Shown here one piece after another: positions 1,241-20,015 of a stretch of DNA of 22,333 bases. A program made the position numbers and the translations under genes. The notes beneath the pieces were generated by a model. It saw only the letters and a program-made list of their open reading frames with translations. It ran no database searches and had not been told where the DNA came from. Position 1 is the stretch's first letter, and every line of letters begins with the position of its first letter. Origin of the DNA: a virus. The DNA lies in the IMG/VR virus record IMGVR_UViG_3300031463_000035, positions 1 to 22,333 of that record. One strand, 5' to 3'.

Positions 1241-1924
1241 GTGAGAGCAAAGGTAAGAATCGGTGAATTGGTGGTTGACTCAAAACTTATCGAGCTGCGG
1301 CCAATCAACCCGGTCTTTGTGAGCCGCTATCGGCAGTCTTACCGTATGGGGGCTGCAATCCCACCCCTAATTGTGGAGGAGGGGACAAACCGGATAATAA
1401 GCGGAAACCACAGATATACGGCCATGGTGCAGGAATTTGGGCCGGATTACAAAACCGAGGTGATTTACAAAAAATTTGAGGATGAACTGGCGGTCTTGAA
1501 AGAGTTCACTCGGGATAACGCCGCACATGGATATCCTCTGGACGGCATCACCCGGAAACGCTTGGTGGCGGCCATGTTGGATCTGGGAGCGACGATTGAA
1601 GAGGTGGCGAGACTGCTCAATGTCCCGGTCAGGAATCTGGAATCATGGGGCCGGAATTTTGTGGCGGTAATCGGCTCTGACGGCATGCAGCGCCATGTGC
1701 CAGTGAAGCGGGGGTTTCCGGCGGTGCAAACCACCATCACCCCTCAGCTTTATGAAGAGCACAAGCGGGCCGACAGAGGGTTGAAGGTGGAGGAGCTGGT
1801 CGGCCAGCTTTTGCGATGGCTCCGGAATGGCTGGGTCGAGCCCAAAGAGGACATAGTAGCGAGCCTAGATGAACTCCAACGGGAAATTACCCGGTTCTTG
1901 AAACAAGCGGAAAGGGCTGCATGA
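1241..1924 (+). CDS. ParB/sulfiredoxin-fold domain protein
   Basis: A 227-residue protein starting at GTG 1241 with a purine-rich ribosome site (AAGGAGAGAGGAGAG, 1221-1235). The N-terminal 110 residues have the ParB-N layout: a short strand pair, then PPLIVEEGTNRIISGNHRYT (residues 41-60), where the G-N-H-R-Y box is the nucleotide-binding signature. Residues 118-135 (TIEEVARLLNVPVRNLES) look like a helix-turn-helix, so DNA binding is likely. The C-terminus is helical. Phage ParB-fold proteins range from CTP-dependent partition factors to nucleases; which one this is cannot be read here. The stop lies only 3 nt before the first degenerate unit of the TIGR-like array, so its transcript may read into the array. 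Confidence 0.75.
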   Translation: MRAKVRIGELVVDSKLIELRPINPVFVSRYRQSYRMGAAIPPLIVEEGTNRIISGNHRYTAMVQEFGPDYKTEVIYKKFEDELAVLKEFTRDNAAHGYPLDGITRKRLVAAMLDLGATIEEVARLLNVPVRNLESWGRNFVAVIGSDGMQRHVPVKRGFPAVQTTITPQLYEEHKRADRGLKVEELVGQLLRWLRNGWVEPKEDIVASLDELQREITRFLKQAERAA

Positions 1925-1927
1925 AGA

Positions 1928-3141
1928 GATGAAGCCGATAGACTGAAGAAACCCAGAACCCAAAAGCGGACCATGCAATGTAAGAAACCCAGCGGTGAGG
2001 AGCGAGCCAAAAAGAAGAAGCAACCCAAATAGATCAAGCGAGCCAATCGGCAAAAGAAACCCACGAGACGAAAGCGAGCCACGGTAGGCGAGAAATCCAG
2101 AATGGGAAAGCGAGCCACGCAATATAAGAAACCCATAGCCCAAAAGCGAGCCAGTTGAAGGAAGAAGCCCATGAAAAGTAAGCGAGCCATATTCCGGAAG
2201 AAACCCTAGCGGATGAAGCGAGCCATCGCCAATAAGGCGCCCGAAAAAGCTAAGCGAGCCATGTATCGAAAGAAACCCATTCAGGCAAAGCGAGCCATGC
2301 ACCACAAGAAACCCACAAACCACAAGCGAGCCAAATATTTGAAGGAACCCAAAGCTTGGAAGCGGGCCATTAACTATAAGAAACCCAGAGGTTGAAAGCG
2401 GGCCAATGCTTGGAAGAAGACCACAGGGCAAAAGCGAGCCAAGAGCAGAAAGAAACCCAGCTCGCGGAAGCGAGCCATTGGAGGGAAGAAACCCAGAAGT
2501 TATAAGCGAGCCAGATGCCCTAAGAAACCCATGACGAGCAAGCGAGCCAAAAAGAAAAAGAAACCCAGGGCAGGCAAGCGAGCCAAGTGTTGGAAGAAAC
2601 CCATTGAATGAAAGCGAGCCATTCGGCGGAAGAAGCCCAAGGTCCCGAAGCGAGCTACTCTCAGCAAGGAACCCAAGAAGGTAAAGCGGGCCATATGATG
2701 GAAGAAACCCAAGCGGATGAAGCGAGCCATGCTGCTGAAGAAGCCCAACGAATGAAAGCGGGCCACGAGGCCGAAGAAACCCAAGAGCTACAAGCGAGCC
2801 AAAGGTGATAAATAACTCAGCGAGCCAAAGGCTCCAAGAAACCCACAGATTGTAAGCGAGCCCGGGGGGAAAAGAAACCCAGATCACGGGAGCGAGCCAA
2901 GGAGTTCAAGTAACCCAAGCCTCCGAAGCGAGCCAAGGTGGTGAAGAAACCCATTACTGGTAAGCGGGCCATCTAAGATAAGAACCCCAAAGAGTGCAAG
3001 CGAGCCAAAGATCAAAAGAAACCCACAGGGCGAAAGCGAGCCACAATCCGGCAAGAAACCCAATGGCAAGAAGCGAGCCAATTTTTTTAAGAAACCCATT
3101 GAATAAAAGCGAGCCATGAGGCTAAGAAGCCCAAAAAATAA
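1928..3141 (+). repeat. TIGR-like array 1: alternating 9-nt repeats and 9-nt spacers, 36-nt period
   Basis: About 34 consecutive units of [AAGCGAGCC - 9-nt spacer - AAGAAACCC - 9-nt spacer], giving roughly 67 spacers. Examples of the first repeat are at 2036-2044, 2072-2080 and 2612-2620; of the second at 2054-2062 and 2594-2602. Repeats vary slightly (AAGCGGGCC, AAGAAGCCC, AAGGAACCC). The first unit is decayed (GATGAAGCC at 1928). The array ends 18 nt before the tas start codon. Phase is almost perfect: one unit is shortened to 26 nt (2792-2817), one spacer has 10 nt (3043-3052) and the last first-half spacer has 8 nt (3116-3123). Two alternating repeat types with two short spacers per 36-nt unit is the published layout of TIGR arrays (edge repeat, spacer A, loop repeat, spacer B). 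I see no promoter of its own; it may be read from the ParB-like gene. Confidence 0.9.
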
Positions 3142-3159
3142 AGCCTAAGGAGAACCAGA

Positions 3160-4020
3160 ATGAAGACCCAGGACCAAATCGCACTATTAATGTATGCCCG
3201 GGCCCGTGAAGACTTTCAAGACATGCGCAAACGTATGGATAACCGGTTGGGCCGCAAGGCCGATGGCAGCGCTCAAGAGCTAAAGGAACAACGGTTTTTC
3301 GCAGTGGAGGATGTCGAAAATTTCAATTTGATCTCCATGGAAGCACGGCGTAATGAGAAGCAGGTGGAGAAGATGCTTCGCCAAATATTGAACCGCTTCC
3401 GTATCTGGCGAGAGTGGTTAAGCAAAGTCAAGGGAATCGGGGAAATTGCTGCGGCTTGGCTGATCGGGTCCATTGATATCGAGATGGCCGACACCGTGAG
3501 CAAAATCTGGCAGTATGCTGGCCTCAACCCTGGCTTGGTGCGAGGCAAAAAACGGGTGTCTATCAAGGACTACAAACCAGACCAGGGAGAAGTCTGCGGG
3601 ATAATTAAACAGGACGGCAGGGATAAAGATTATATTGTCCTTACCAACACCTTGATAAGGGGCGACCGGCCGACGCCAGGATTTATCCTGCCTTACAACA
3701 AAAAGCTACGGGTTGTTCTGATGGGCATCTTGGCCCCTTCATTCATTAAAACCAAGTCAGAATACGCCCTCAATTTCTACTACCCCATGAAAGCACGACT
3801 GGAACAGGAAACCAACCCGATTGATAGCGTCGGGACTAAAGACGACGGCAAACCCTGGTGTGATGTCAGTAAAGGCCACCGGGACATGGCAGCAAAACGC
3901 TATATGATCAAAAACTTTCTGAAGGATTTGTATGTTGCTTGGAGGACAATTGAAGGGCTGCCAGTTAGGGTGCCCTATGCTGAGGAATACCTTGGCAAGA
4001 AACATATGGGGGCGCGATAG
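3160..4020 (+). CDS. tas: Tas-like protein (Nop/IS110-C-terminal-like), no nuclease domain
   Basis: A 286-residue protein with ribosome site AAGGAG at 3147-3152. Residues 1-88 are helical and charged (coiled-coil-like). Residues 90-125 hold a helix-hairpin-helix-like segment, VKGIGEIAAAWLIGSI, then WQYAGLNPG, the pattern seen in IS110/IS116 transposase C-terminal (Transposase_20) domains. Residues 179-215 (YNKKLRVVLMGILAPSF onward) match that domain's second half. The C-terminus (238-282) is K-G-H-R-D-M-A-A-K-R-Y, then FLKDLYVAWRTIEGLP. No DEDD/RuvC domain precedes it and no HNH motif follows it, so it is not an intact transposase. Flanked by two TIGR-like arrays, it fits a Tas protein of the nuclease-less (TasA-type) group, whose Nop-like domain binds the guide RNA. 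Function beyond RNA-guided DNA recognition is inference. Confidence 0.8.
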   Translation: MKTQDQIALLMYARAREDFQDMRKRMDNRLGRKADGSAQELKEQRFFAVEDVENFNLISMEARRNEKQVEKMLRQILNRFRIWREWLSKVKGIGEIAAAWLIGSIDIEMADTVSKIWQYAGLNPGLVRGKKRVSIKDYKPDQGEVCGIIKQDGRDKDYIVLTNTLIRGDRPTPGFILPYNKKLRVVLMGILAPSFIKTKSEYALNFYYPMKARLEQETNPIDSVGTKDDGKPWCDVSKGHRDMAAKRYMIKNFLKDLYVAWRTIEGLPVRVPYAEEYLGKKHMGAR

Positions 4021-4086: not shown

Positions 4087-4275
4087 AAATGAGCCAAGGC
4101 AAAGAAGAAGCCCATTCGGTTTAAGCGAGCCACTGCATAAAAGAAGCCCATGCAATAGAAGCGAGCCAAATTATGGAAGAAGCCCAACAACTAAAAGCGA
4201 GCCAATAGGCCAAAGAAACCCACAGGAGGGAAGCGAGCCATCAAAGACAAGGAACCCATTGGGAAGAAGCGAACT
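4087..4275 (+). repeat. TIGR-like array 2: five units plus a terminal repeat
   Basis: This has the same 36-nt grammar as array 1. First-type repeats are at 4087 (AAATGAGCC, degenerate), 4123, 4159, 4195, 4231 and 4267 (AAGCGAACT, degenerate end). Second-type repeats are at 4105, 4141, 4177, 4213 and 4249. There are ten 9-nt spacers, all beginning with A and none identical to a spacer in array 1. Three of the five second-type repeats are AAGAAGCCC plus one at 4105, so this version predominates here whereas AAGAAACCC predominates in array 1. The terminal repeat directly abuts the ATG at 4276. Confidence 0.9.
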
Positions 4276-4728
4276 ATGGAAACAGCAAAAGCCAAAAAAA
4301 TTGACGAAATCCTAAAAAGCCCAGGAAGAATCGAATGTCAGGCCCTAAGGGCCAACATCTCAACCCAGCAGTGTGCCATAAACCAAGCCCAAGCCAAATT
4401 GAACCCCTACAGCCCACTTCAGCATTGTCTTAGCTGCCAGCATCCCCACCGAGCTAAAAACGAGGTCAAGAGCAAGGCTAGCGGCGGAATTTATAACTAT
4501 CACCCCAGAAGCCGAGCTATTCGGGCAGCGGCTGCACGGGGTGAGTTGGAGAGGTTTAGGGCTGGAGGCATGGGGGCTCGGTTGCGGGGCTTGGTGAATG
4601 CAAGCATCCGGGCTGGTTGGAATAAGGACAAGATAAAGCAAAAGCTTAAGGCCATCGATGATGCCGAAACCCGTGAAAAAATGTCCATCCTACATGGATG
4701 GACAGAGGAGTTGAGAGGGCAAACCTGA
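4276..4728 (+). CDS. Hypothetical Cys-rich (zinc-binding-like) protein
   Basis: A 150-residue protein. Four cysteines in the first third, C-x12-C (CQALRANISTQQC, residues 21-33) then C-x2-C (HCLSCQ, near 56-60), suggest a zinc site. The rest is basic and helical (AIRAAAARGELERF; KDKIKQKLKAIDDAETREK), so nucleic-acid binding is plausible. The ATG at 4276 follows the last array repeat with no space, and its only possible ribosome site (GGGAAGAAG) lies inside the final spacer and repeat. Its translation therefore depends on the array transcript unless a later start is used. No named family is recognised. It may be a TIGR-associated protein or simply the next phage gene. Confidence 0.65.
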   Translation: METAKAKKIDEILKSPGRIECQALRANISTQQCAINQAQAKLNPYSPLQHCLSCQHPHRAKNEVKSKASGGIYNYHPRSRAIRAAAARGELERFRAGGMGARLRGLVNASIRAGWNKDKIKQKLKAIDDAETREKMSILHGWTEELRGQT

Positions 4729-4732
4729 ATTC

Positions 4733-5227
4733 ATGACAAAGGGCGGTGAGGATAGGCTGTTCATCGGCGTCAAGGAAATCGCCGAATTCCTGCGCCTACA
4801 TTGGCGCACCTGTTACCGCCATCTCAAGGCAGGGCGCCTCCCTGCCAGACAAGACAGCTTGGGGCGTTGGGTTATGACCGCTGAAGACTATTACCAGACA
4901 TTAAGGCCGCCGCAAAAGGAGGAGGATGGAACCCCAGATCAAGGTTTATGCAGGGGTGAAGTGGGGCCTGTTGGAACCCACGGTGATTCTGGCGGCGGAA
5001 TATCATCCCCCGCCAGCGGACCGGATACACCTCATACGCGAGCTTTATCGACGGGAACTCTACCTGGAGGAGCTTCTGGCGATCGCCAGCGCTTGGCGGG
5101 AGGAACTGCAAATCAGACGGTTCTTCTGCGACCCAGCGGAACCGGAATTGATCAACCGCCTGCGCCGGGCCCGGCTCCCCGCGGTGGCGGCCCCCAAAGA
5201 GCAAAGCCTGGCCCTGAACCTGATTAA
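4733..5227 (+). CDS. Excisionase-type helix-turn-helix protein with an overlapping-frame tail
   Basis: A 164-residue ORF. Residues 9-58 form a clear MerR/excisionase-type (HTH_17) unit: FIGVKEIAEFLRLHWRTCYR, then HLKAGRLPARQDSLGRWVMT. After about residue 64 the frame overlaps the TerL-nuclease-like gene (from 4926), and the translated tail is Gly/Pro/Ser/Thr-rich without hydrophobic pattern, which looks like an out-of-frame reading. Either the protein truly keeps this tail, or an indel near 4910-4930 has separated an HTH domain from the downstream nuclease-like domain. The function of the HTH part is probably DNA recognition; the ORF end is uncertain. Confidence 0.6.
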   Translation: MTKGGEDRLFIGVKEIAEFLRLHWRTCYRHLKAGRLPARQDSLGRWVMTAEDYYQTLRPPQKEEDGTPDQGLCRGEVGPVGTHGDSGGGISSPASGPDTPHTRALSTGTLPGGASGDRQRLAGGTANQTVLLRPSGTGIDQPPAPGPAPRGGGPQRAKPGPEPD

Positions 5228-5435
5228 ACAACGGCTGGCTAATACCCGGGAAGGCAAACCAGGGGGGCTGACCATTTCCCGGGATTGTGTGAACACCATA
5301 CCGGAGTTTATGAAATACCACCTGCCAGAAGGTAAGAATAGGCCAGCGGACGCCGACGCTCACGGCCTCAAAGCTCTGCATTTTCTGGTTTTGGGTTTGA
5401 GCCTGGAAACAACACCGAGGGTGAGATGGCTATGA
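4926..5435 (+). CDS. TerL nuclease-domain paralogue, probably inactive
   Basis: A 169-residue protein, ATG at 4926 behind AGGAGG at 4918-4923. It aligns by eye with the RNase-H-like C-terminal nuclease of large terminases: VYAGVKWG (7-14), RRFFCDPAEPELI (64-76), LTISRDCVNTIPEFMKYHLP (115-134) and HGLKALHFLV (146-155). In active enzymes the first motif is G-V/I-D-W/F-G and the last is A-L-D-A-L-R-Y. Here both aspartates are lysine (K12, K149), while D69 is kept. It lacks the ATPase domain. It overlaps the HTH gene. It may be a decayed terminase copy, or a DNA-binding protein reusing the fold; the other nuclease gene at 9427 is the better candidate for the working enzyme. Confidence 0.65.
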   Translation: MEPQIKVYAGVKWGLLEPTVILAAEYHPPPADRIHLIRELYRRELYLEELLAIASAWREELQIRRFFCDPAEPELINRLRRARLPAVAAPKEQSLALNLIKQRLANTREGKPGGLTISRDCVNTIPEFMKYHLPEGKNRPADADAHGLKALHFLVLGLSLETTPRVRWL

Positions 5436-9426: not shown

Positions 9427-9933
9427 ATGAGCCATAACCTAGCCGTCTTCAGCTATAACCCCCAGGGAGAGCTTTACCTTGGTATCGATTTCGGCTACCG
9501 TAACCCCTTTGCCTGCTTATGGATTCAGCCCAGGGATAGAGGTGAGCGGGTGCTGGTGTTGGACGAATACTACCAGCGTTTCCGCACGACCCTGGAAAAC
9601 GGCAAGGCTATCCTAGCCCACCACCAAGCTAGGGGCTACGGTTCTATAACCTGTGCCTTTGCCGACCCCTCAGACCCAGACAAGCGGGCCATGCTGTCGG
9701 AAATCCTGGGGGTGGAGGTAAAGGCCCCGCGGCTGCCGGTGGAGGTGGGCCAGGAACTGGTGCGGCAATGGCTGAAAGTAAGGCCGGAAGATGGCTTGCC
9801 TGGCCTCCTGATCCACCACCGCTGCAAGAACCTGATCCGGGAACTTACGGGCTACATGGTGCATGAACCTGGGAAAGGTGAGCATCACGCCTTGGATGGC
9901 TTAAGATATTTCTTTGCAGGTTGGCAGTCCTAA
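9427..9933 (+). CDS. terL: Terminase large subunit, nuclease domain (separate gene)
   Basis: 168 residues forming only the RNase-H-like nuclease half of TerL. LYLGIDFGYRNPFACLW (17-33) carries the first catalytic Asp (D21), VLVLDEYYQ the conserved Glu (E47), TCAFADPSDPDKRAM the second Asp (near 80), and HHALDGLRYFFAGW the last Asp. These are the residues that cut concatemeric DNA for packaging. The protein begins with LAVFSYNPQGEL, which in ordinary TerL is the linker right after the ATPase; the ATPase gene at 11710 ends with FDLSVHVI, just before that linker. So TerL is split at the domain border, and the halves are in reversed order with 1.8 kb between. The start ATG has a weak ribosome site. 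Confidence 0.85.
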   Translation: MSHNLAVFSYNPQGELYLGIDFGYRNPFACLWIQPRDRGERVLVLDEYYQRFRTTLENGKAILAHHQARGYGSITCAFADPSDPDKRAMLSEILGVEVKAPRLPVEVGQELVRQWLKVRPEDGLPGLLIHHRCKNLIRELTGYMVHEPGKGEHHALDGLRYFFAGWQS

Positions 9934-11709: not shown

Positions 11710-12657
11710 ATGGCGTGGCAGGGGATTGAATTCAAGGCTAACAAGTGTGTTTTGCCTCCGCCGGCTTCTGTTGCTGCCCCTAAGGAAATCCGGCAGTTGG
11801 TGGATTATCACCAGGCTTGCGGGTTTGACAGCCCGGAAGAGCTGTTGGACTTTATCAAGGTCTTCTGGGGCATCCATATCCCCCGGGCCAAGGTCTGCCC
11901 GGAACATACCCCACCAGCGGAGTATGTTACCGCTGCCTTTTTTGAGGAGGCTCTGGATTGTGTCTGCTGGGCCAACCGGGGCGGCGGTAAGACCTTCGAC
12001 GGCGCTTTGGTGACCTGGCTGGACTCGGTGTTCAAGGCGGGCTGCGAGACCAAAATCCTGGGGGGGTCCGGGGAGCAGAGCCTCAGGATGTATGAGCACA
12101 TGAAGGGCTTTATCACCCCTCCCTTTCAGCACCTGGTGGAGGGGGAGGCCCTGCGCACCCGCACCCATCTGGTGAACGGCTCCAATGTCCAGATACTCAC
12201 GGCCTCAATGAAATCTATCCGGGGCCCCCACCCCCAGAGGCTCAAGCTGGACGAGGTGGACGAGTTTGAGGATCGCATTTATGAAGCCGCCCTCCTGATC
12301 CCCAAATCGACCCGGGGCATCAGGGCTAGCGTCCAGATTTACTCCACCATGCATAAAGCTTACGGCCTGATGAGCCGGGTAGTGGCCGAGGCAGCGGAGA
12401 GCGGCTACCGGTTGTTCAAATGGTGCGTTTTCGACGTCATGGAAAAATGCGTGAACCGGGACTGCGAGACTTGCGAGCTGTGGGAGGAGTGTGAGGGCAG
12501 GGCCAGGAACGCCGACGGCTTTTACCCGGTTGAGGACGCCATCACCGCCAAACGGCGGGTGTCCCGGGAAACCTGGGAGGCGGAGATGCTCTGCCGGATG
12601 CCCAGCCAGGAAGGGCTGATTTATAAGGAGTTTGATTTGTCTGTGCATGTCATCTGA
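11710..12657 (+). CDS. terL: Terminase large subunit, ATPase domain (separate gene)
   Basis: 315 residues, the DNA-translocating ATPase half of TerL. Walker A is ANRGGGKTF (88-96) and Walker B is LKLDEVDE (178-185) with the catalytic Glu. The coupling segment near ASVQIYSTMHKAYG follows. A cysteine cluster, C-x4-C-x2-C-x5-C (about 249-263), may bind zinc and is found in some terminases. The protein stops after IYKEFDLSVHVI, precisely where single-chain TerL would continue into the nuclease linker; that nuclease is the gene at 9427. The two must meet in trans to package DNA. The first gene after the sigma54 promoter. The ATG at 11710 is the only sensible start, although its ribosome site is poor. 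Confidence 0.88.
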   Translation: MAWQGIEFKANKCVLPPPASVAAPKEIRQLVDYHQACGFDSPEELLDFIKVFWGIHIPRAKVCPEHTPPAEYVTAAFFEEALDCVCWANRGGGKTFDGALVTWLDSVFKAGCETKILGGSGEQSLRMYEHMKGFITPPFQHLVEGEALRTRTHLVNGSNVQILTASMKSIRGPHPQRLKLDEVDEFEDRIYEAALLIPKSTRGIRASVQIYSTMHKAYGLMSRVVAEAAESGYRLFKWCVFDVMEKCVNRDCETCELWEECEGRARNADGFYPVEDAITAKRRVSRETWEAEMLCRMPSQEGLIYKEFDLSVHVI

Positions 12658-13458: not shown

Positions 13459-13644
13459 ATGTTGATTGAGCAATTAACGGAAGAAATTAGGCGGGCTTTG
13501 ATCAATCATCGCTGCCACCACAAGGCTTGTGATTGTTACAAAGCACGAGAACTCTTAAATCTATTGGAAGCTTTGGCTAGAGTGAGATATCCCTGGGCCC
13601 CTGATCTGGTTGTGAGAACAGAGTTTAGAGAGTTTAGGCGGTGA
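13459..13644 (+). CDS. Small hypothetical protein
   Basis: 61 residues from ATG 13459 behind a GGGGGTG purine run; the frame is open upstream, but that part overlaps the end of the previous gene. Contains a cysteine/histidine group, NHRCHHKACDCYKARELLN (about residues 15-33), possibly metal-binding, then a leucine-rich helix. The stop overlaps the GTG start of the methyltransferase gene (GTGA at 13641-13644), so the two are coupled. Confidence 0.6.
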   Translation: MLIEQLTEEIRRALINHRCHHKACDCYKARELLNLLEALARVRYPWAPDLVVRTEFREFRR

Positions 13645-14195
13645 TAAAAGGGGAGTATCGCACTATCCTTATTGACCCCCCATGGCAGGAAAGGGGCGGG
13701 GGCCGGATCAAGCGGGGGGCAGACCGGCACTACCGGCTGCTGAGCACCCCGGAGATCATCGCCACTATCCTGCGGTGCGAGATCTTCCGCCCTGCCCCCT
13801 CTGCCCACCTCTACCTATGGGTAACTAACAATTTCCTGCCAGACGGCCTGCTGGTGGTGCAGGCGTTGGGCTTCCATTACAAAACCCTGCTCACCTGGGC
13901 CAAAGACCGTTTCGGCTTGGGCCAATATTTCCGCGGCCAGACCGAACACATGATCTTTGCCACCAAAGGCCCCCACCTAGCGGCCAAGGCAAAAAACCAC
14001 TCCACCCTGATCTATGCCAAACGAGGCCGGCACTCTGCCAAACCGGAGGCGGCTTATGAACTAATTGAAGCGGTCTCACCAGCTCCCTACCTGGAACTGT
14101 TTGCCCGCACCACACGGCCAGGCTGGGACTGCTGGGGCGAGGAGGTCCAGCCCGGAACCAGGCTGTTTGACGGCTTGGTGCTGCATGCCTATTAA
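13641..14195 (+). CDS. MT-A70-family adenine N6-DNA methyltransferase
   Basis: 184 residues. It opens YRTILIDPPWQERGGGRIKR (6-25), with the catalytic D-P-P-W typical of MT-A70/Ime4-type enzymes. HLYLWVTNNFLPDGLLVVQA (about 56-75) and the Y-K-T-L-L-T-W-A-K strand are the family's next conserved blocks, followed by GQTEHMIFATKG and the closing block P-Y-L-E-L-F-A-R-T-T-R-P-G-W-D-C-W-G (about 150-167). These enzymes methylate adenine in a sequence context and in phages commonly protect DNA from restriction. It starts with GTG overlapping the previous stop. It is the last gene before the 1.2-kb gene-free region. Confidence 0.88.
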   Translation: MIKGEYRTILIDPPWQERGGGRIKRGADRHYRLLSTPEIIATILRCEIFRPAPSAHLYLWVTNNFLPDGLLVVQALGFHYKTLLTWAKDRFGLGQYFRGQTEHMIFATKGPHLAAKAKNHSTLIYAKRGRHSAKPEAAYELIEAVSPAPYLELFARTTRPGWDCWGEEVQPGTRLFDGLVLHAY

Positions 14196-15421
14196 CTCAT
14201 ACCAATAACATAATACCATCACCCAAGTAACGCTTATGACAAAACCCGGTAATACTGGGCGACGGTAGGGTTTCCCCTCATTACCGAAGTAACTTACGAA
14301 TAATATATCCCTTACAATATAATAAAAATATCGCAATATAATAAAAATATCGCAATATGATAAAAATATCGCAGGCGGTGTCCCGGCGATTGTTCGATAG
14401 TGTTTTGGTATAAAAAATTGGCTTTTACTGTAAAAATTTTTTTACCGTGTAACTTTAATTAATTATTATAAAATCGGGTTTTGTCATTTTGCCCAATATA
14501 AATTTTTATACTCTGTCTTTTTTCTTTATCTATAGCCTTGCCGTCGGGTGGTTTGTTGTTGCCCTGTTATCGAGATGCACAAGTAACTATATAAAACTAT
14601 TACCAAAAAGGGAATGAAAAGATTTTCACGGGCCAAAAATAATAAGTCCTTTCGGTAGCTTAGGCATACTGAGTGCAATATTGATAATCAAACAAAACAC
14701 AAAATAAAAAAAGGAGGTGAGAGCGAGAGAGAGCGGCAAGCCGACAAAGGCGCCACCAAATAACCCGCCGGATTGGGGCCCAGGGGAGCAGCCGGGTCCC
14801 TCACAAAACTCCCCAAAAACCGGAAGGCAGACGGCGGGACGCTCAAAAAAAGAAGGGCAACCTGGGATAGCAACCAGGGGAAAAACAAATGCAAATTCCG
14901 AGCAACCCTTTAAAGCCTTGGCGCCAGCGACCAGGAGCCCAGGTGAGGGAGAGGGTGAGGCGGTTCTGGGTCCCACGGGGCGGGCGCAAGTCAAACCGTG
15001 GAAACGCAGATAGGCGGCGCAACCGAAAGCGACCAGCAACTGAGCGGCTTGATAAGGAATCTAAAGGCTCACGTGTTTTTGAGTGGCACGAGAAGAACTC
15101 TGGGGTCCTGGCCCCTTAACCAGGGCGGAGCTAAGAACCGGGAACGAGGCGAAACCGGTAGTCAGCCAAAGCAAACTGAGGCAAGGCCAGCCGGCCCGTG
15201 GTGCGTGCGACGGGAGGGCCGGAAGGAAGGCGAGCGGCGGCAGGCAAGCGAAAGCGCACGGAATTAGCAACCGGGAAGGGCGACGTGAAACCTGAAACCC
15301 AGCGGGCGGGCGGCCCATAAAGCCCAAAGCAGTTTTGGCTCTGAAGGGGGGGCGGAAACGGAAAACCGGTTCTGGTCTCCCATTGAGCGCCAAAGCTCAA
15401 ATAAAAAAAGGAGGCAGGACG
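14196..15421. other. Gene-free 1.2-kb region: iterons, AT-rich tract, GC-rich structured tract
   Basis: No frame here is convincing. The longest (14717-15013 and 14889-15119 on +, 14626-15039 and 15061-15393 on -) give low-complexity Pro/Gly/Arg products; the GTG at 14717 even overlaps its own AGGAGG. From left: inverted repeat CGGTAAT/ATTACCG (14247/14280), three 19-bp iterons (14316-14372), very AT-rich DNA (14400-14640), then from about 14700 a purine-rich, GC-rich tract with many hairpins. Strong ones are CCGGCCC/GGGCCGG at 15191-15224, CCACGG/CCGTGG near 14973-15001 and a 7-bp GGGGCCC/GGGTCCC stem near 14776-14802. The tract begins and ends with the same AAATAAAAAAAGGAGG string (near 14702 and 15399). 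Replication origin and/or long structured RNA are the main options. Confidence 0.6.
14316..14372 (+). repeat. Three tandem 19-bp iterons
   Basis: AATATAATAAAAATATCGC occurs at 14316-14334 and 14335-14353 exactly, and at 14354-14372 with one change (A to G at the sixth base). They abut without spacers and lie beside an AT-rich tract, the arrangement of initiator-binding iterons at plasmid and phage origins. No initiator gene is recognised nearby. Confidence 0.7.
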
Positions 15422-17691: not shown

Positions 17692-18603
17692 ATGATTACC
17701 GACTACCTGAAGGCTGGTTATCCAGCCTTACTGGTGCGAACCCATGAGCCGCAGCGGTTCATCGCCTCCGGGGTTCAGCAGGCTAACGGCCGTACCCCTT
17801 ATCAATGGGATGTGGTGCGGGGCTACCGGCAAATGGGCAATGGTGGCGGGTGGCAGGAGTGCGACCCCTATGACCTGCCCAATGTGGCGGCAAAAGGGGC
17901 CGAAAAAGCGGTGTGGTTCCTGCGCAACTATCACTTTTGGCTGAATGAGCCTTCGGTCATCCAGGCCATCCAGAACAGCCTTCCTGTTTATAAAACCAAG
18001 GGTATCACCTTGGTAATTGTGTCTCCGGAAGCCAAGGTGCCAGTGGAGCTGGAGCGGGAGTTGGTGGTGCTGGACTTCCCCCTGCCCACCCGGGAGGAGC
18101 TGAAAACCATCCTGGACGGCTTGGTGGAGAGCACCGGCATAGAACCTGGGGACACAGAGGCGGTGCTGGATGCAGCCCAGGGACTCACCTGGGAGGAGGC
18201 CGAAAACGCCATGGCTCTAGCCTTGGTGCGCCAGAAACGGTTTGACCCCCAGACCATCTGCACTTTGAAGGCTCAGATGGTGGAGAAATCCGCAGCCTTA
18301 CAGTTTTCGCAGTTCACCGAGACCTTCGCCACTTTGGGGGGGCTGGAGAACCTGAAGGAGTGGACTCTCAACCGGTTCAAGAACCAGCGGCCCGGGCTGC
18401 CTTTCCGGGGCATCCTGCTCCTGGGGGTGCCCGGAACTGGCAAGAGCCACTTCGCTAAGGCTCTGGGAAACGAAGTGGGCTGGCCGGTCTTGTCCCTGGA
18501 CATGGGCCGGGTGTTCGGGTCTCTGGTGGGCGAAAGCGAAGCCAGGATGCGGGAGGCCCTGAAGGTGGTGGACGCCATGGCTCCGGTGGTGTTGTTCATC
18601 GAT
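17692..18603 (+). CDS. Ycf46-like AAA+ ATPase, exon 1
   Basis: Exon 1 encodes residues 1-304 of a 470-residue protein. The N-terminal 200 residues (MITDYLKAGYPALLVRTHEP onward) match the layout of Ycf46/Slr0374-type ATPases. The AAA+ core has GVPGTGKS (Walker A, 245-252), RVFGSLVGESEARMREAL (second helix region) and VVLFID (299-304), ending after the Walker B Asp. The following codon in this reading is TAA; the missing Glu is at the start of exon 2. The ATP-driven target is unknown. Members co-occur with DUF1257 and DUF2997 genes, which are found downstream here. The cut lies in a motif that cannot be lost, so splicing is needed for function. Confidence 0.88.
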
Positions 18604-19514
18604 TAACTTCGGTCGATGTAAAACCGTGTGAATTGCTGGGACGCCCTTAGAGCTTTGGAGGCTACAGCATAGGCGGAAACGCCAAGTGCGAAGGCTGGAA
18701 AACTCCAAAGATTGGGTAATCAGCAGCCAAGCCCCTAAGTCCTGAGCGATAAGGGGAAGGTTCGACGGCTATCCCGCAAGGGAGTAGGGACCAAGAGGTT
18801 CCGAAGCGCACGGCAGGTTTTTCCCCTCTCTCGGTATTTTTATCCCCGCAGCAAATCTTCTTCTTCCTCGCCCTTAAATAAATATAAGGAGAATGATTGA
18901 TATATGTGGGCAAAGAAATATGAACGCTGCATTAATTGCGGCGAAACAAGAGTCAAGCACATGGCTAAAGGTCTTTGTGCCAGGTGTTACTCTTACCAAT
19001 ATGCACATGACCCCCAGAAATCTGAGAGGGTAAGGGAACAAAAAAGGCAATGGTATTTCCAGCAAGGTGGCTTCATGTATGGCAAGAGATTGCGTGAAAA
19101 AAGGTGGTTCGACGGCAAGCGTGAGGCAATCTTGGCAAAAGCTAAATACCGTTGCTCTAAATGTAAACGCAAACTTCCAGCTACAAAATTGGTTGTTCAC
19201 CATAAAGATGGTAAAGGTAGGGGCTCAAAGAATTCCAATAATGAGGATTCAAACCTGATTGCTCTTTGCAGAGCCTGCCATTTGAATATACACAGATACG
19301 AAATTTGCAAATATCATGAACGGCAAAAACTAAACAGATGGGCGAGGAAATACGATTGTTGTTTGGAATGCGGGACAACAGAAAGAAGGCATAGAGCTTT
19401 TGGCTTATGCTGGAAATGCTATAGCGTGAAGAGAGGAAAAACTTGAAGATATAGCCTGGACTATAGCGAAAGCTATAGAGGGCGGTCGGAATCGGGCCGC
19501 CTGCAACACAATCG
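18604..19514 (+). mobile_element. Group I intron in the AAA+ gene
   Basis: 911 nt. P1: exon bases CATCGAT (18597-18603) pair with intron GTCGATG (18612-18618), leaving the required U-G pair at the 5' splice site. The intron ends with G (19514), and exon 2 begins GAA, which can pair with intron TTC (18608-18610) as P10. The core contains AATCAGCAGCCAAGCC (18718-18733, P4 side) and AAGGTTCGACGGCTA (R element). P7 forms between GGCTAT (18767-18772) and ATAGCC (19451-19456), the latter inside AAGATATAGCC, a near-consensus S element. P9 is CTATAGC-GAAA-GCTATAG (19461-19478), followed by a GGCGG/CCGCC helix. The endonuclease gene lies between the two P7 strands. Removal restores an in-frame Walker B. 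Confidence 0.9.
18904..19446 (+). CDS. HNH homing endonuclease inside the group I intron
   Basis: 180 residues, ribosome site AAGGAGA upstream. Residues 80-125 hold the HNH core: CSKCKRKLPATKLVVHHKDG, then NNEDSNLIALCRACHLNIHR, with the H-H catalytic pair, Asn, His and two zinc-binding cysteine pairs. Two further cysteine modules flank it symmetrically: CINCGETRVKHMAKGLCARC (10-29) and CLECGTTERRHRAFGLCWKC (156-175). Both have C-x2-C, a basic stretch, G-L-C-x2-C, and so look like duplicated zinc fingers for DNA binding. The stop overlaps the S element. The enzyme should cut the intronless AAA+ gene and drive intron spread. Confidence 0.88.
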   Translation: MWAKKYERCINCGETRVKHMAKGLCARCYSYQYAHDPQKSERVREQKRQWYFQQGGFMYGKRLREKRWFDGKREAILAKAKYRCSKCKRKLPATKLVVHHKDGKGRGSKNSNNEDSNLIALCRACHLNIHRYEICKYHERQKLNRWARKYDCCLECGTTERRHRAFGLCWKCYSVKRGKT

Positions 19515-20015
19515 GAAATCGAGAAGGGGCTGGCCGGGGTGGGGGGCTCTTCCACCGACGGCGGCACCACCCAGCGGGTGGGCGGCACCTTTTTAACATG
19601 GCTAAACGATCATACCAGCCAGGTGTTTGTCATTGCCACCTGCAACGATTACAGCAAGCTGCCCCCGGAATACACCCGCATGGGTCGCTGGGACGCCATC
19701 TTCTTCGTGGACAATCCCGGCCCCGGGGAGCGGGAGCAGATTTTAAAAATCTACCTGGAGCAATTCCAGGTGAAACCCAAGGGTAAAAACCTTCCTGACC
19801 TGGAAGGCTACAGCGGCGCGGAAATCCGGCAGGTGGCTATTGAGGCCGCTTATAACGGCGGCGACCTGGAGGCTGCGGCCCGGTTTGTTATCCCCATTTC
19901 CCGGAGCCAGAAGGCCCAGATGGACGCCCTGCGGGAATGGGCCCGGGCTCGGACCATCCTGGCCAGCAAGCCCCAGGCGGAGGAAACCAAAAGTAGAAGG
20001 AGGGTGCAGATATGA
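19515..20015 (+). CDS. Ycf46-like AAA+ ATPase, exon 2
   Basis: Exon 2 adds residues 305-470, beginning EIEKGLAGVGGSSTDGGTTQ so that the spliced Walker B reads VVLFIDEIEKGLAG. Then come the sensor-1 region VFVIATCNDYSKLPPEYTRM, the arginine-finger/second-region-of-homology stretch G-R-W-D-A-I-F-F-V-D, NPGPGEREQILKIYLEQF and the C-terminal lid with YSGAEIRQVAIEAAYNGGDL (sensor-2 area). The stop TGA at 20013-20015 overlaps the ATG of the next gene. Without splicing this half has no start of its own worth using. Confidence 0.88.
   Translation, partial: EIEKGLAGVGGSSTDGGTTQRVGGTFLTWLNDHTSQVFVIATCNDYSKLPPEYTRMGRWDAIFFVDNPGPGEREQILKIYLEQFQVKPKGKNLPDLEGYSGAEIRQVAIEAAYNGGDLEAAARFVIPISRSQKAQMDALREWARARTILASKPQAEETKSRRRVQI

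What the first reader, a model, noticed from the sequence alone, without database searches (positions are those of the whole stretch)
3160..4020. The Tas-like protein has no visible nuclease domain
The only ORF between the arrays has a helical N-terminus, a helix-hairpin-helix/Nop-like core and a C-terminal cap, but no RuvC-type D/E motif series and no HNH. TasR and TasH carry such nucleases. A nuclease-less version could bind DNA to block transcription, or recruit a separate effector. Candidate partners nearby are the Cys-rich protein (4276), the HTH protein (4733), the D-to-K TerL-nuclease-like protein (4926) and the ParB-fold protein (1241).
Basis: partly seen in the sequence, partly recalled or inferred. 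Interest (0 to 1): 0.75.

Follow-up and report, generated by a model that had tools for sequence, protein, structure and literature searches.

The report
Nuclease-less TIGR guide protein with ParB
A bacterial virus carries a long array of paired short RNA guides and a guide-binding protein that lacks a DNA-cutting part; this is a new example of the recently described TasA type of TIGR system, and the one gene found beside it in nearly every related virus encodes a ParB-like DNA-binding protein, which is the partner worth testing.

Summary
ORF 3160-4020 (286 aa) lies between two dual-repeat TIGR arrays (34 units before it, 5 after). An AlphaFold2 model (pLDDT 86.6) superposes along its whole length on TasH after its HNH part (Z 19.5) and on TasR after its RuvC domain (Z 17.7). 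Only about 48 residues precede the Nop body, so neither nuclease domain is present. Of the four partners proposed, only the ParB gene at 1241 travels with tas: 12 of 13 non-redundant contigs, the exception being cut off 89 bp after tas. The Cys-rich, HTH and TerL-like genes occur in 2 of 13 (the window and its nearest relative). No nuclease gene travels with it. TasA is under strong purifying selection (dN/dS 0.06), a relative keeps two copies, and guides turn over fast: one guide pair is shared with a phage whose TasA is 93% identical. I found no natural target above permuted-guide controls. Best reading: RNA-guided DNA binding without cutting, working with TasParB. Binding, partnership and silencing are inferred, not shown.

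The parts
3160..4020 (+). tasA: solo Nop-domain TIGR-associated protein, 286 aa, no nuclease domain
1241..1924 (+). tasParB: ParB-N fold plus HTH, 227 aa, upstream of the array on the same strand; the only gene shared with nearly all tas relatives
1928..3143 (+). upstream TIGR dual-repeat array, 34 dual-spacer units of about 36 nt (edge AAGCGAGCCA, loop AAGAAACCCA, spacers about 8 nt), starting 4 nt after the parB stop codon; first and last edge repeats truncated, unit 2792 degenerate
4087..4276 (+). downstream TIGR array, 5 units, ending in a degenerate edge repeat that overlaps the start of the Cys-rich ORF
3034..3080 (+). guide unit CAATCCGGC / ATGGCAAG with its flanking edge repeats, conserved letter for letter in the two long arrays of the relative L002 while almost all other guides differ
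3283..3516 (+). tasA codons 42-119: second coiled-coil helix and helix-hairpin-helix, the part most alike to TasR and IS110 (Transposase_20, sub-threshold)

Best explanation
The locus is a TIGR-TasA system of a tailed phage, probably of a deltaproteobacterial host, in the TasA+TasParB sub-type. The presumed operon parB - array - tasA - array is read in one direction. The arrays give about 39 dual-spacer tigRNAs of 36 nt. TasA, a bare Nop body, dimerises through its coiled coil, holds one tigRNA and opens a 16-bp dsDNA site by pairing spacer A with one strand and spacer B with the other. With no nuclease it binds, and probably bends, the site without cutting. The consequence comes from occupancy and from TasParB, a ParB-fold HTH protein that TasA would recruit or load at guide-chosen sites to block transcription, replication or inheritance of competing elements. 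Shown here: gene and array anatomy, Nop fold without a nuclease domain, near-invariable ParB linkage, purifying selection, fast guide turnover. Known for relatives (PMC12045711): 36-nt tigRNA binding by TasA, tandem-spacer targeting by TasR and TasH. Inferred: DNA binding by this TasA, physical contact with TasParB, silencing as the outcome, competing elements as the target.
For: Homology and fold to TasR and TasH beginning after their nuclease domains. Dual-repeat arrays beside tas, with repeats ending in CCA (box C) and edge and loop sharing their first three bases AAG; 36-nt arrays flank tas in the related contigs I inspected. parB next to tas in 12 of 13 non-redundant contigs, upstream in 7 and downstream in 5, always on the same strand; the next most shared non-tas gene family reaches 3 of 13. 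Reciprocally, 9 of the 10 contigs found with the ParB profile carry tas; the tenth, L019, is a weak match. dN/dS 0.064 and 0.063 for tasA against the two copies in L002, 0.057 between those two copies, 0.129 for parB. One guide pair shared with L002 out of 37 parsed window units. ParB model: ParB-N + HTH, best Z 12.8 to CTP-binding ParB over residues 1-102, with GNHR in 11 and [DE]N in 12 of the 12 sequences aligned (read by eye).
Against: No target was found. 163 unique guides against 1.19 Mb of fetched DNA gave 20 one-mismatch sites against 19, 23, 21 and 25 for four permutations, and one exact site outside those fetched by the guide itself. Other spacings and orientations were also at control level. 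No interaction or binding was measured or modelled. A ParB relative exists without tas within its 7.7-kb contig (L096), so this ParB family is not devoted to TIGR. In TasParB the canonical GERR and ENxQR (recalled motifs) are GNHR and mostly [DE]NxxHG, so CTP binding is uncertain.
Confidence: 0.6

Rival explanations
1. TasA with its tigRNA acts alone as a roadblock or regulator; parB is carried in the operon for a separate job such as phage or plasmid partition.
For: Experimentally, FpTasA without clear partner genes binds 36-nt RNAs (PMC12045711). TasParB relatives exist without tas (L096).
Against: ParB is adjacent in 12 of 13 contigs in both gene orders while other neighbours change, which is hard to explain by chance carriage.
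Confidence: 0.2
2. The system acts on the phage's own DNA: RNA-guided partition, regulation or help to the integrase through DNA bending.
For: ParB family; DNA bending and integrase help are suggested in PMC12045711; L002 has a tyrosine recombinase gene about 6 kb upstream of tas.
Against: No own-contig match to the 37 window guides above permuted controls; no integrase family shared among the 13 contigs within 5 kb; rapid guide turnover does not fit a fixed own site.
Confidence: 0.12
3. A separate nuclease encoded nearby cuts in trans (RusA at 809, the TerL-like protein at 4926, or the HNH at 18904).
For: RusA is immediately upstream of parB in the window and L002; the TerL-like protein is related to the TerL nuclease.
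Against: RusA and the TerL-like gene recur in no tas locus other than L002; the TerL-like protein has Lys for the first catalytic Asp (YAGVKWG for YLGIDFG); the HNH lies inside a probable group I intron.
Confidence: 0.05
4. The protein has a cryptic catalytic site and cuts DNA or processes its own guide RNA.
For: E17, D18, D51, E66, D106, D169, H240, E265 and E276 are invariant in 11 sequences.
Against: In the profile alignment D106, H240 and E265 match residues also present in TasR or TasH outside their nuclease domains, and the others sit on separate helices and loops. PMC12045711 states that Tas proteins do not themselves catalyse processing. Distances between side chains were not measured.
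Confidence: 0.03
5. It is a decayed IS110-type transposase, as database labels say (phrog_4285 'transposase').
For: Transposase_20 sub-threshold hit, E 0.0049; phrog_4285 E 2.6e-35 over 3-283; IS621 Z 13.5.
Against: Closer to TasH and TasR (Z 17.1-19.5) than to IS621; strong purifying selection; arrays at the tas loci; no DEDD domain.
Confidence: 0.02

Closest known systems
TIGR-TasA (solo Nop domain; Flavonifractor plautii FpTasA, Faure et al. 2025, PMC12045711)
   Same: Nop body without nuclease, dual-repeat array, 36-nt unit, box C CCA at the end of both repeats, on mobile elements
   Different: 8-nt rather than 9-nt spacers, repeats start AAG rather than UG, about 39 units rather than the usual 5-15, strict ParB neighbour
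TasA with TasParB (same paper, methods section on the parB-like gene; fig. S14 itself not seen)
   Same: parB-like gene operonised with tasA, 10-nt repeats, arrays upstream, between and downstream
   Different: Nothing essential seen; here the linkage is measured in one clade (12 of 13) and the nearest relative has two tasA copies
TasH (PDB 9w04, 21kl, 9vzx) and TasR (PDB 9mty)
   Same: Nop body, fold over the full length of the model
   Different: They carry an N-terminal HNH or RuvC nuclease domain, absent here
IS110-family RNA-guided recombinases (IS621, 8wt6)
   Same: C-terminal Nop-like RNA-binding domain
   Different: No DEDD domain, no bridge RNA seen, arrays instead
ParB/Noc/KorB CTPase clamps (for the partner)
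   Same: ParB-N fold plus HTH
   Different: GNHR for GERR, [DE]NxxHG for ENxQR; CTP binding untested

Membership tests
TIGR-TasA | Nop domain of the Tas family | tested here: met
   TasR E 2.1e-18 and TasH E 3.8e-16 by profile; Z 19.5 and 17.7
TIGR-TasA | No RuvC or HNH nuclease domain | tested here: met
   Model begins at TasH residue 63 and TasR residue 112; only about 48 residues, one helix and a loop, precede the Nop body
TIGR-TasA | Array of two alternating 8-12-nt repeats with short spacers next to tas | tested here: met
   10-nt repeats, about 8-nt spacers, 34+5 units
TIGR-TasA | Repeats end in box C (CCA) and edge and loop covary | tested here: met
   Window edge and loop both AAG...CCA; in relatives such as L009, GAG edges go with GAG loops (read by eye); exceptions in last bases: L013 loop ends ACA, L015 edge ends CTA
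TIGR-TasA | Repeats start with box D (UG), as in TasR arrays | tested here: not met
   Repeats start AAG; the source derives UG from TasR arrays and says the motifs can diverge
TIGR-TasA | Processed 36-nt tigRNA bound by the protein | not testable with these tools
   Needs small-RNA sequencing of a pull-down
TIGR-TasA | Tandem-spacer DNA targeting | not testable with these tools
   No natural target found, which neither supports nor refutes it
TasA+TasParB sub-type | parB-like gene in operon with tasA, arrays with 10-nt repeats upstream, between or downstream | tested here: met
   parB 1241-1924, same strand, array starts 4 nt after its stop; 12 of 13 contigs including the window. Co-transcription itself not testable
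TasA+TasParB sub-type | Head-to-head TasA dimer and TasParB dimer through the C-terminus | not tested
   No multimer prediction on hand
TasR | N-terminal RuvC with D11-type active site | tested here: not met
TasH | N-terminal HNH | tested here: not met
IS110 transposase | N-terminal DEDD domain with C-terminal Transposase_20 | tested here: not met
   Only the C-terminal part matches, sub-threshold; IS621 aligned from residue 123 on
ParB CTPase (partner) | CTP binding through GERR and ENxQR motifs (recalled) | tested here: inconclusive
   Fold met (Z 12.8); motifs altered to GNHR and [DE]NxxHG

The most novel reading that the evidence does not exclude
TasA-tigRNA serves as a programmable loading site for a ParB-family clamp: the guide RNA replaces the fixed parS sequence, so that the phage can start ParB spreading and silence or mis-segregate any DNA it names, without cutting it.
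Probability: 0.15. Interest if true: 0.85.

Novelty: new member of a known kind. Interest (0 to 1): 0.4.

Why it matters
What TasA does without a nuclease is an open question of the TIGR paper. This clade gives a clean case: 39 guides, two sister phages with 93% identical TasA and almost wholly different guides, one guide pair kept in all three long arrays, and ParB as the single gene that stays. It makes the ParB-partner question testable and clears away three wrong candidates.

Tried and rejected
Targets: 37 window guides (and those of L002 and L003) against the window and four related contigs, 74 window and L002 guides against 213 kb of related phage DNA, 163 unique guides against 1.19 Mb, and any orientation within 10-300 bp in 563 kb: all at permuted-pair level. 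One search showed one near-match with one mismatch and a 2-nt gap (window unit 2468 to L002:11520); with 15 source-target comparisons I treat it as chance. The conserved guide in all viral contigs: 71 stretches, gaps 0/1/2/3 = 13/23/23/12; the largest homologous cluster, 14 hits, all with gap 1, lies in a gene that looks like a small terminase or DNA-binding protein of other phages (read by eye). I read that as database redundancy, not a target. The same guide hits the nearest TerL relative L091 at 5163 with 15 of 16 bases and a 1-nt gap, in a small ORF whose orthologue in the window differs at the site. My own arithmetic gives 0.015 such sites by chance for that one guide, but many guides were tested, so it is a lead only. 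No exact match to the guide in 29 genomes of the class of G001.

TasA relatives in bacterial genomes: none with A2 in GTDB contigs; 4 of 395 genomes of the phylum gave weak matches, of which L113 looks like a solo Nop protein with a 36-nt periodic tract and the other three sit in longer open frames and look like IS110-type proteins (not examined further). Four deltaproteobacterial MAGs with a related terminase: none. Plasmids: none. Phage records: only the Salicola phage CGphi29 gene (TasH in PMC12045711), 25% identity, in two copies of the same record. Rfam found nothing in the window at gathering thresholds.

Rows dropped: L005 as a near-duplicate of L003 (then 13 contigs including the window); L012, L014, L016, L018 and L093 as second fetches of known contigs; guides with a spacer parsed under 8 nt; L112 and L093 from the related DNA.

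Not seen: the supplement of PMC12045711 (table S1, fig. S14; no look-ups allowed), so I cannot say whether this very contig is listed there. That I know of nothing else in print on TasParB rests only. No papers on the TasH structures were read; they are known here only as PDB entries.

Full report
What the window is. The window is a complete 22,333-base virus record. Its terminase ATPase is most like those in deltaproteobacterial genomes and phages (85%, 81% and 79% identity in MAGs labelled Deltaproteobacteria, 75% and 67% in a Syntrophales MAG, 40% in a Phycisphaerales MAG), so a host in that group is likely but not shown.

The observation. ORF 3160-4020 is the only long frame between the arrays. 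The arrays alternate AAGCGAGCCA and AAGAAACCCA, 10 nt each, with spacers nearly always 8 nt, in units of 36 nt. Because the arrays begin and end with the AAGCGAGCCA type, I take that as the edge repeat and the A-rich AAGAAACCCA as the loop repeat. The one guide pair kept in three arrays (CAATCCGGC / ATGGCAAG) is paired across the loop repeat in that register, which agrees. There are 34 units before tas and 5 after it, more than the 5-15 that the discovery paper calls most common.

No nuclease. An AlphaFold2 model built on 11 homologues has pLDDT 86.6. Foldseek ranks TasH and TasR structures first (E 1.3e-9 to 4.2e-5), then IS621-type recombinases. VIA-align gives Z 19.5 to TasH over model residues 1-282 against chain residues 63-298, Z 17.7 to TasR over 7-273 against 112-303, Z 13.5 to IS621, Z 7.0 to archaeal Nop5. 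Both Tas alignments begin after the nuclease domain, and the N-terminus here is one helix and a loop. Profile comparison agrees. Between the helix-hairpin-helix and the next helix the model has beta hairpins at 126-167; in the TasH profile alignment residues 123 and 170 correspond to TasH 179 and 184, so this is an insertion relative to TasH. It may be the wedge loop described for TasR, or a docking site; I could not tell.

What it is. Faure et al. 2025 (PMC12045711; I read the abstract and outline, sections 4, 6, 7, 8, 9, 10 and 24, the figure legends, and passages found by term) name the solo Nop form TasA, call it the commonest effector, show that it binds 36-nt RNAs, and propose non-cleaving interference or help to integrases. 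They also describe a parB-like gene, tasParB, in operons with tasA, with arrays of 10-nt repeats. The present locus fits that description closely. It fails one feature derived from TasR arrays, the UG start of the repeats; repeats here start AAG.

Which neighbour travels with it. Three scans of viral contigs with TasA and one with ParB gave 13 non-redundant contigs including the window. Clustering of all frames within 5 kb of tas shows parB in 12 of 13; L011, the exception, ends 89 bp after tas. The next gene family reaches 3 of 13. The Cys-rich (4276), HTH (4733) and TerL-like (4926) genes occur in the window and L002 only. parB is upstream of tas in 7 contigs and downstream in 5. The ParB scan found 10 contigs, of which 9 carry tas. 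The counter-example is L096, found through its terminase, which has a ParB relative at E 3.7e-24 and no tas or array within 7.7 kb. The ParB model (pLDDT 84.7) is a ParB-N fold plus HTH: best Z 12.8 to Myxococcus ParB over residues 1-102, and 12.2 to the pNOB8-like ParB over 1-156.

Selection and turnover. Between the window and L002, tasA has dN/dS 0.064 and 0.063 against the two copies; the two L002 copies have dS 0.47 and dN/dS 0.057 between them; parB has 0.129. So both L002 copies are kept. Of 37 parsed window units and 40 L002 units only one guide pair is shared, and the duplicated L002 arrays have drifted at single spacers while repeats stayed.

Targets. Using the published geometry (spacer A, then the reverse complement of spacer B, gap 0-2; deduced by me from the 8-nt 3' overhangs), I found no excess over permuted pairs in the window, its relatives, 213 kb of related phage DNA, or 1.19 Mb of all fetched DNA, nor in other arrangements. 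Since the paper predicts a head-to-head dimer for this TasA type, the target rule may differ, so the null result is weak. One lead, in L091, is recorded under Tried and rejected.

Mechanism. The anatomy and the literature support RNA-guided DNA binding without cutting. Near-invariable ParB linkage supports a two-protein system. Whether the outcome is silencing, replication block, partition or something else is inference; I put 0.6 on binding without cutting together with TasParB, and 0.15 on the bolder reading that TasA-tigRNA loads ParB as a programmable parS.

Verdict. New member of a known kind, useful because it isolates the partner question.

Noticed in passing
window 17692-20015: An AAA+ ATPase gene is split between 18606 and 19539 by an insert that holds an HNH endonuclease ORF (18904-19446) and matches the group I intron model (44.3 bits, E 1e-9, below the gathering score of 50): probably a mobile group I intron in the ATPase core.
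   Followed up: partly
window 4926-5435, 9427-9933, 11710-12657: The terminase is split: a nuclease ORF (9427) and an ATPase ORF (11710) are separate genes, and the 4926 protein is a diverged paralogue of the nuclease ORF (28% identity, E 1e-8) with Asp to Lys at the first catalytic position, conserved in L002 and with dN/dS 0.069.
   Followed up: partly
L002 6702-7610 and 8384-9262: The nearest relative carries two intact tasA copies with three arrays; the copies have dS 0.47 but both stay under purifying selection.
   Followed up: partly
window 3034-3080; L002 6449 and 8150: One guide pair is identical in three arrays while almost all others differ, and its spacer A is 9 nt instead of 8. Why this one is kept is unexplained.
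   Followed up: partly
   Followed up: partly
window 3160-4020 (match to PHROG phrog_4285): The phage protein family that covers TasA over its whole length is labelled 'transposase', probably a misnomer that hides TasA genes in phage annotation.
   Followed up: no
L096 4167-4847: A ParB relative of TasParB without tas or array in its contig: TasParB looks like a branch of a wider phage ParB family.
   Followed up: partly
L004 3764-4116 and L006 2217-2532: 36-nt periodic tracts that are protein repeats inside ORFs, not TIGR arrays: a false-positive source for array finding by period alone.
   Followed up: yes
window 14315-14373: Tandem array of a 19-bp AT-rich unit, 3.1 copies, 97% matches.
   Followed up: no
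window 13641-14195: MT-A70 family methyltransferase gene.
   Followed up: no
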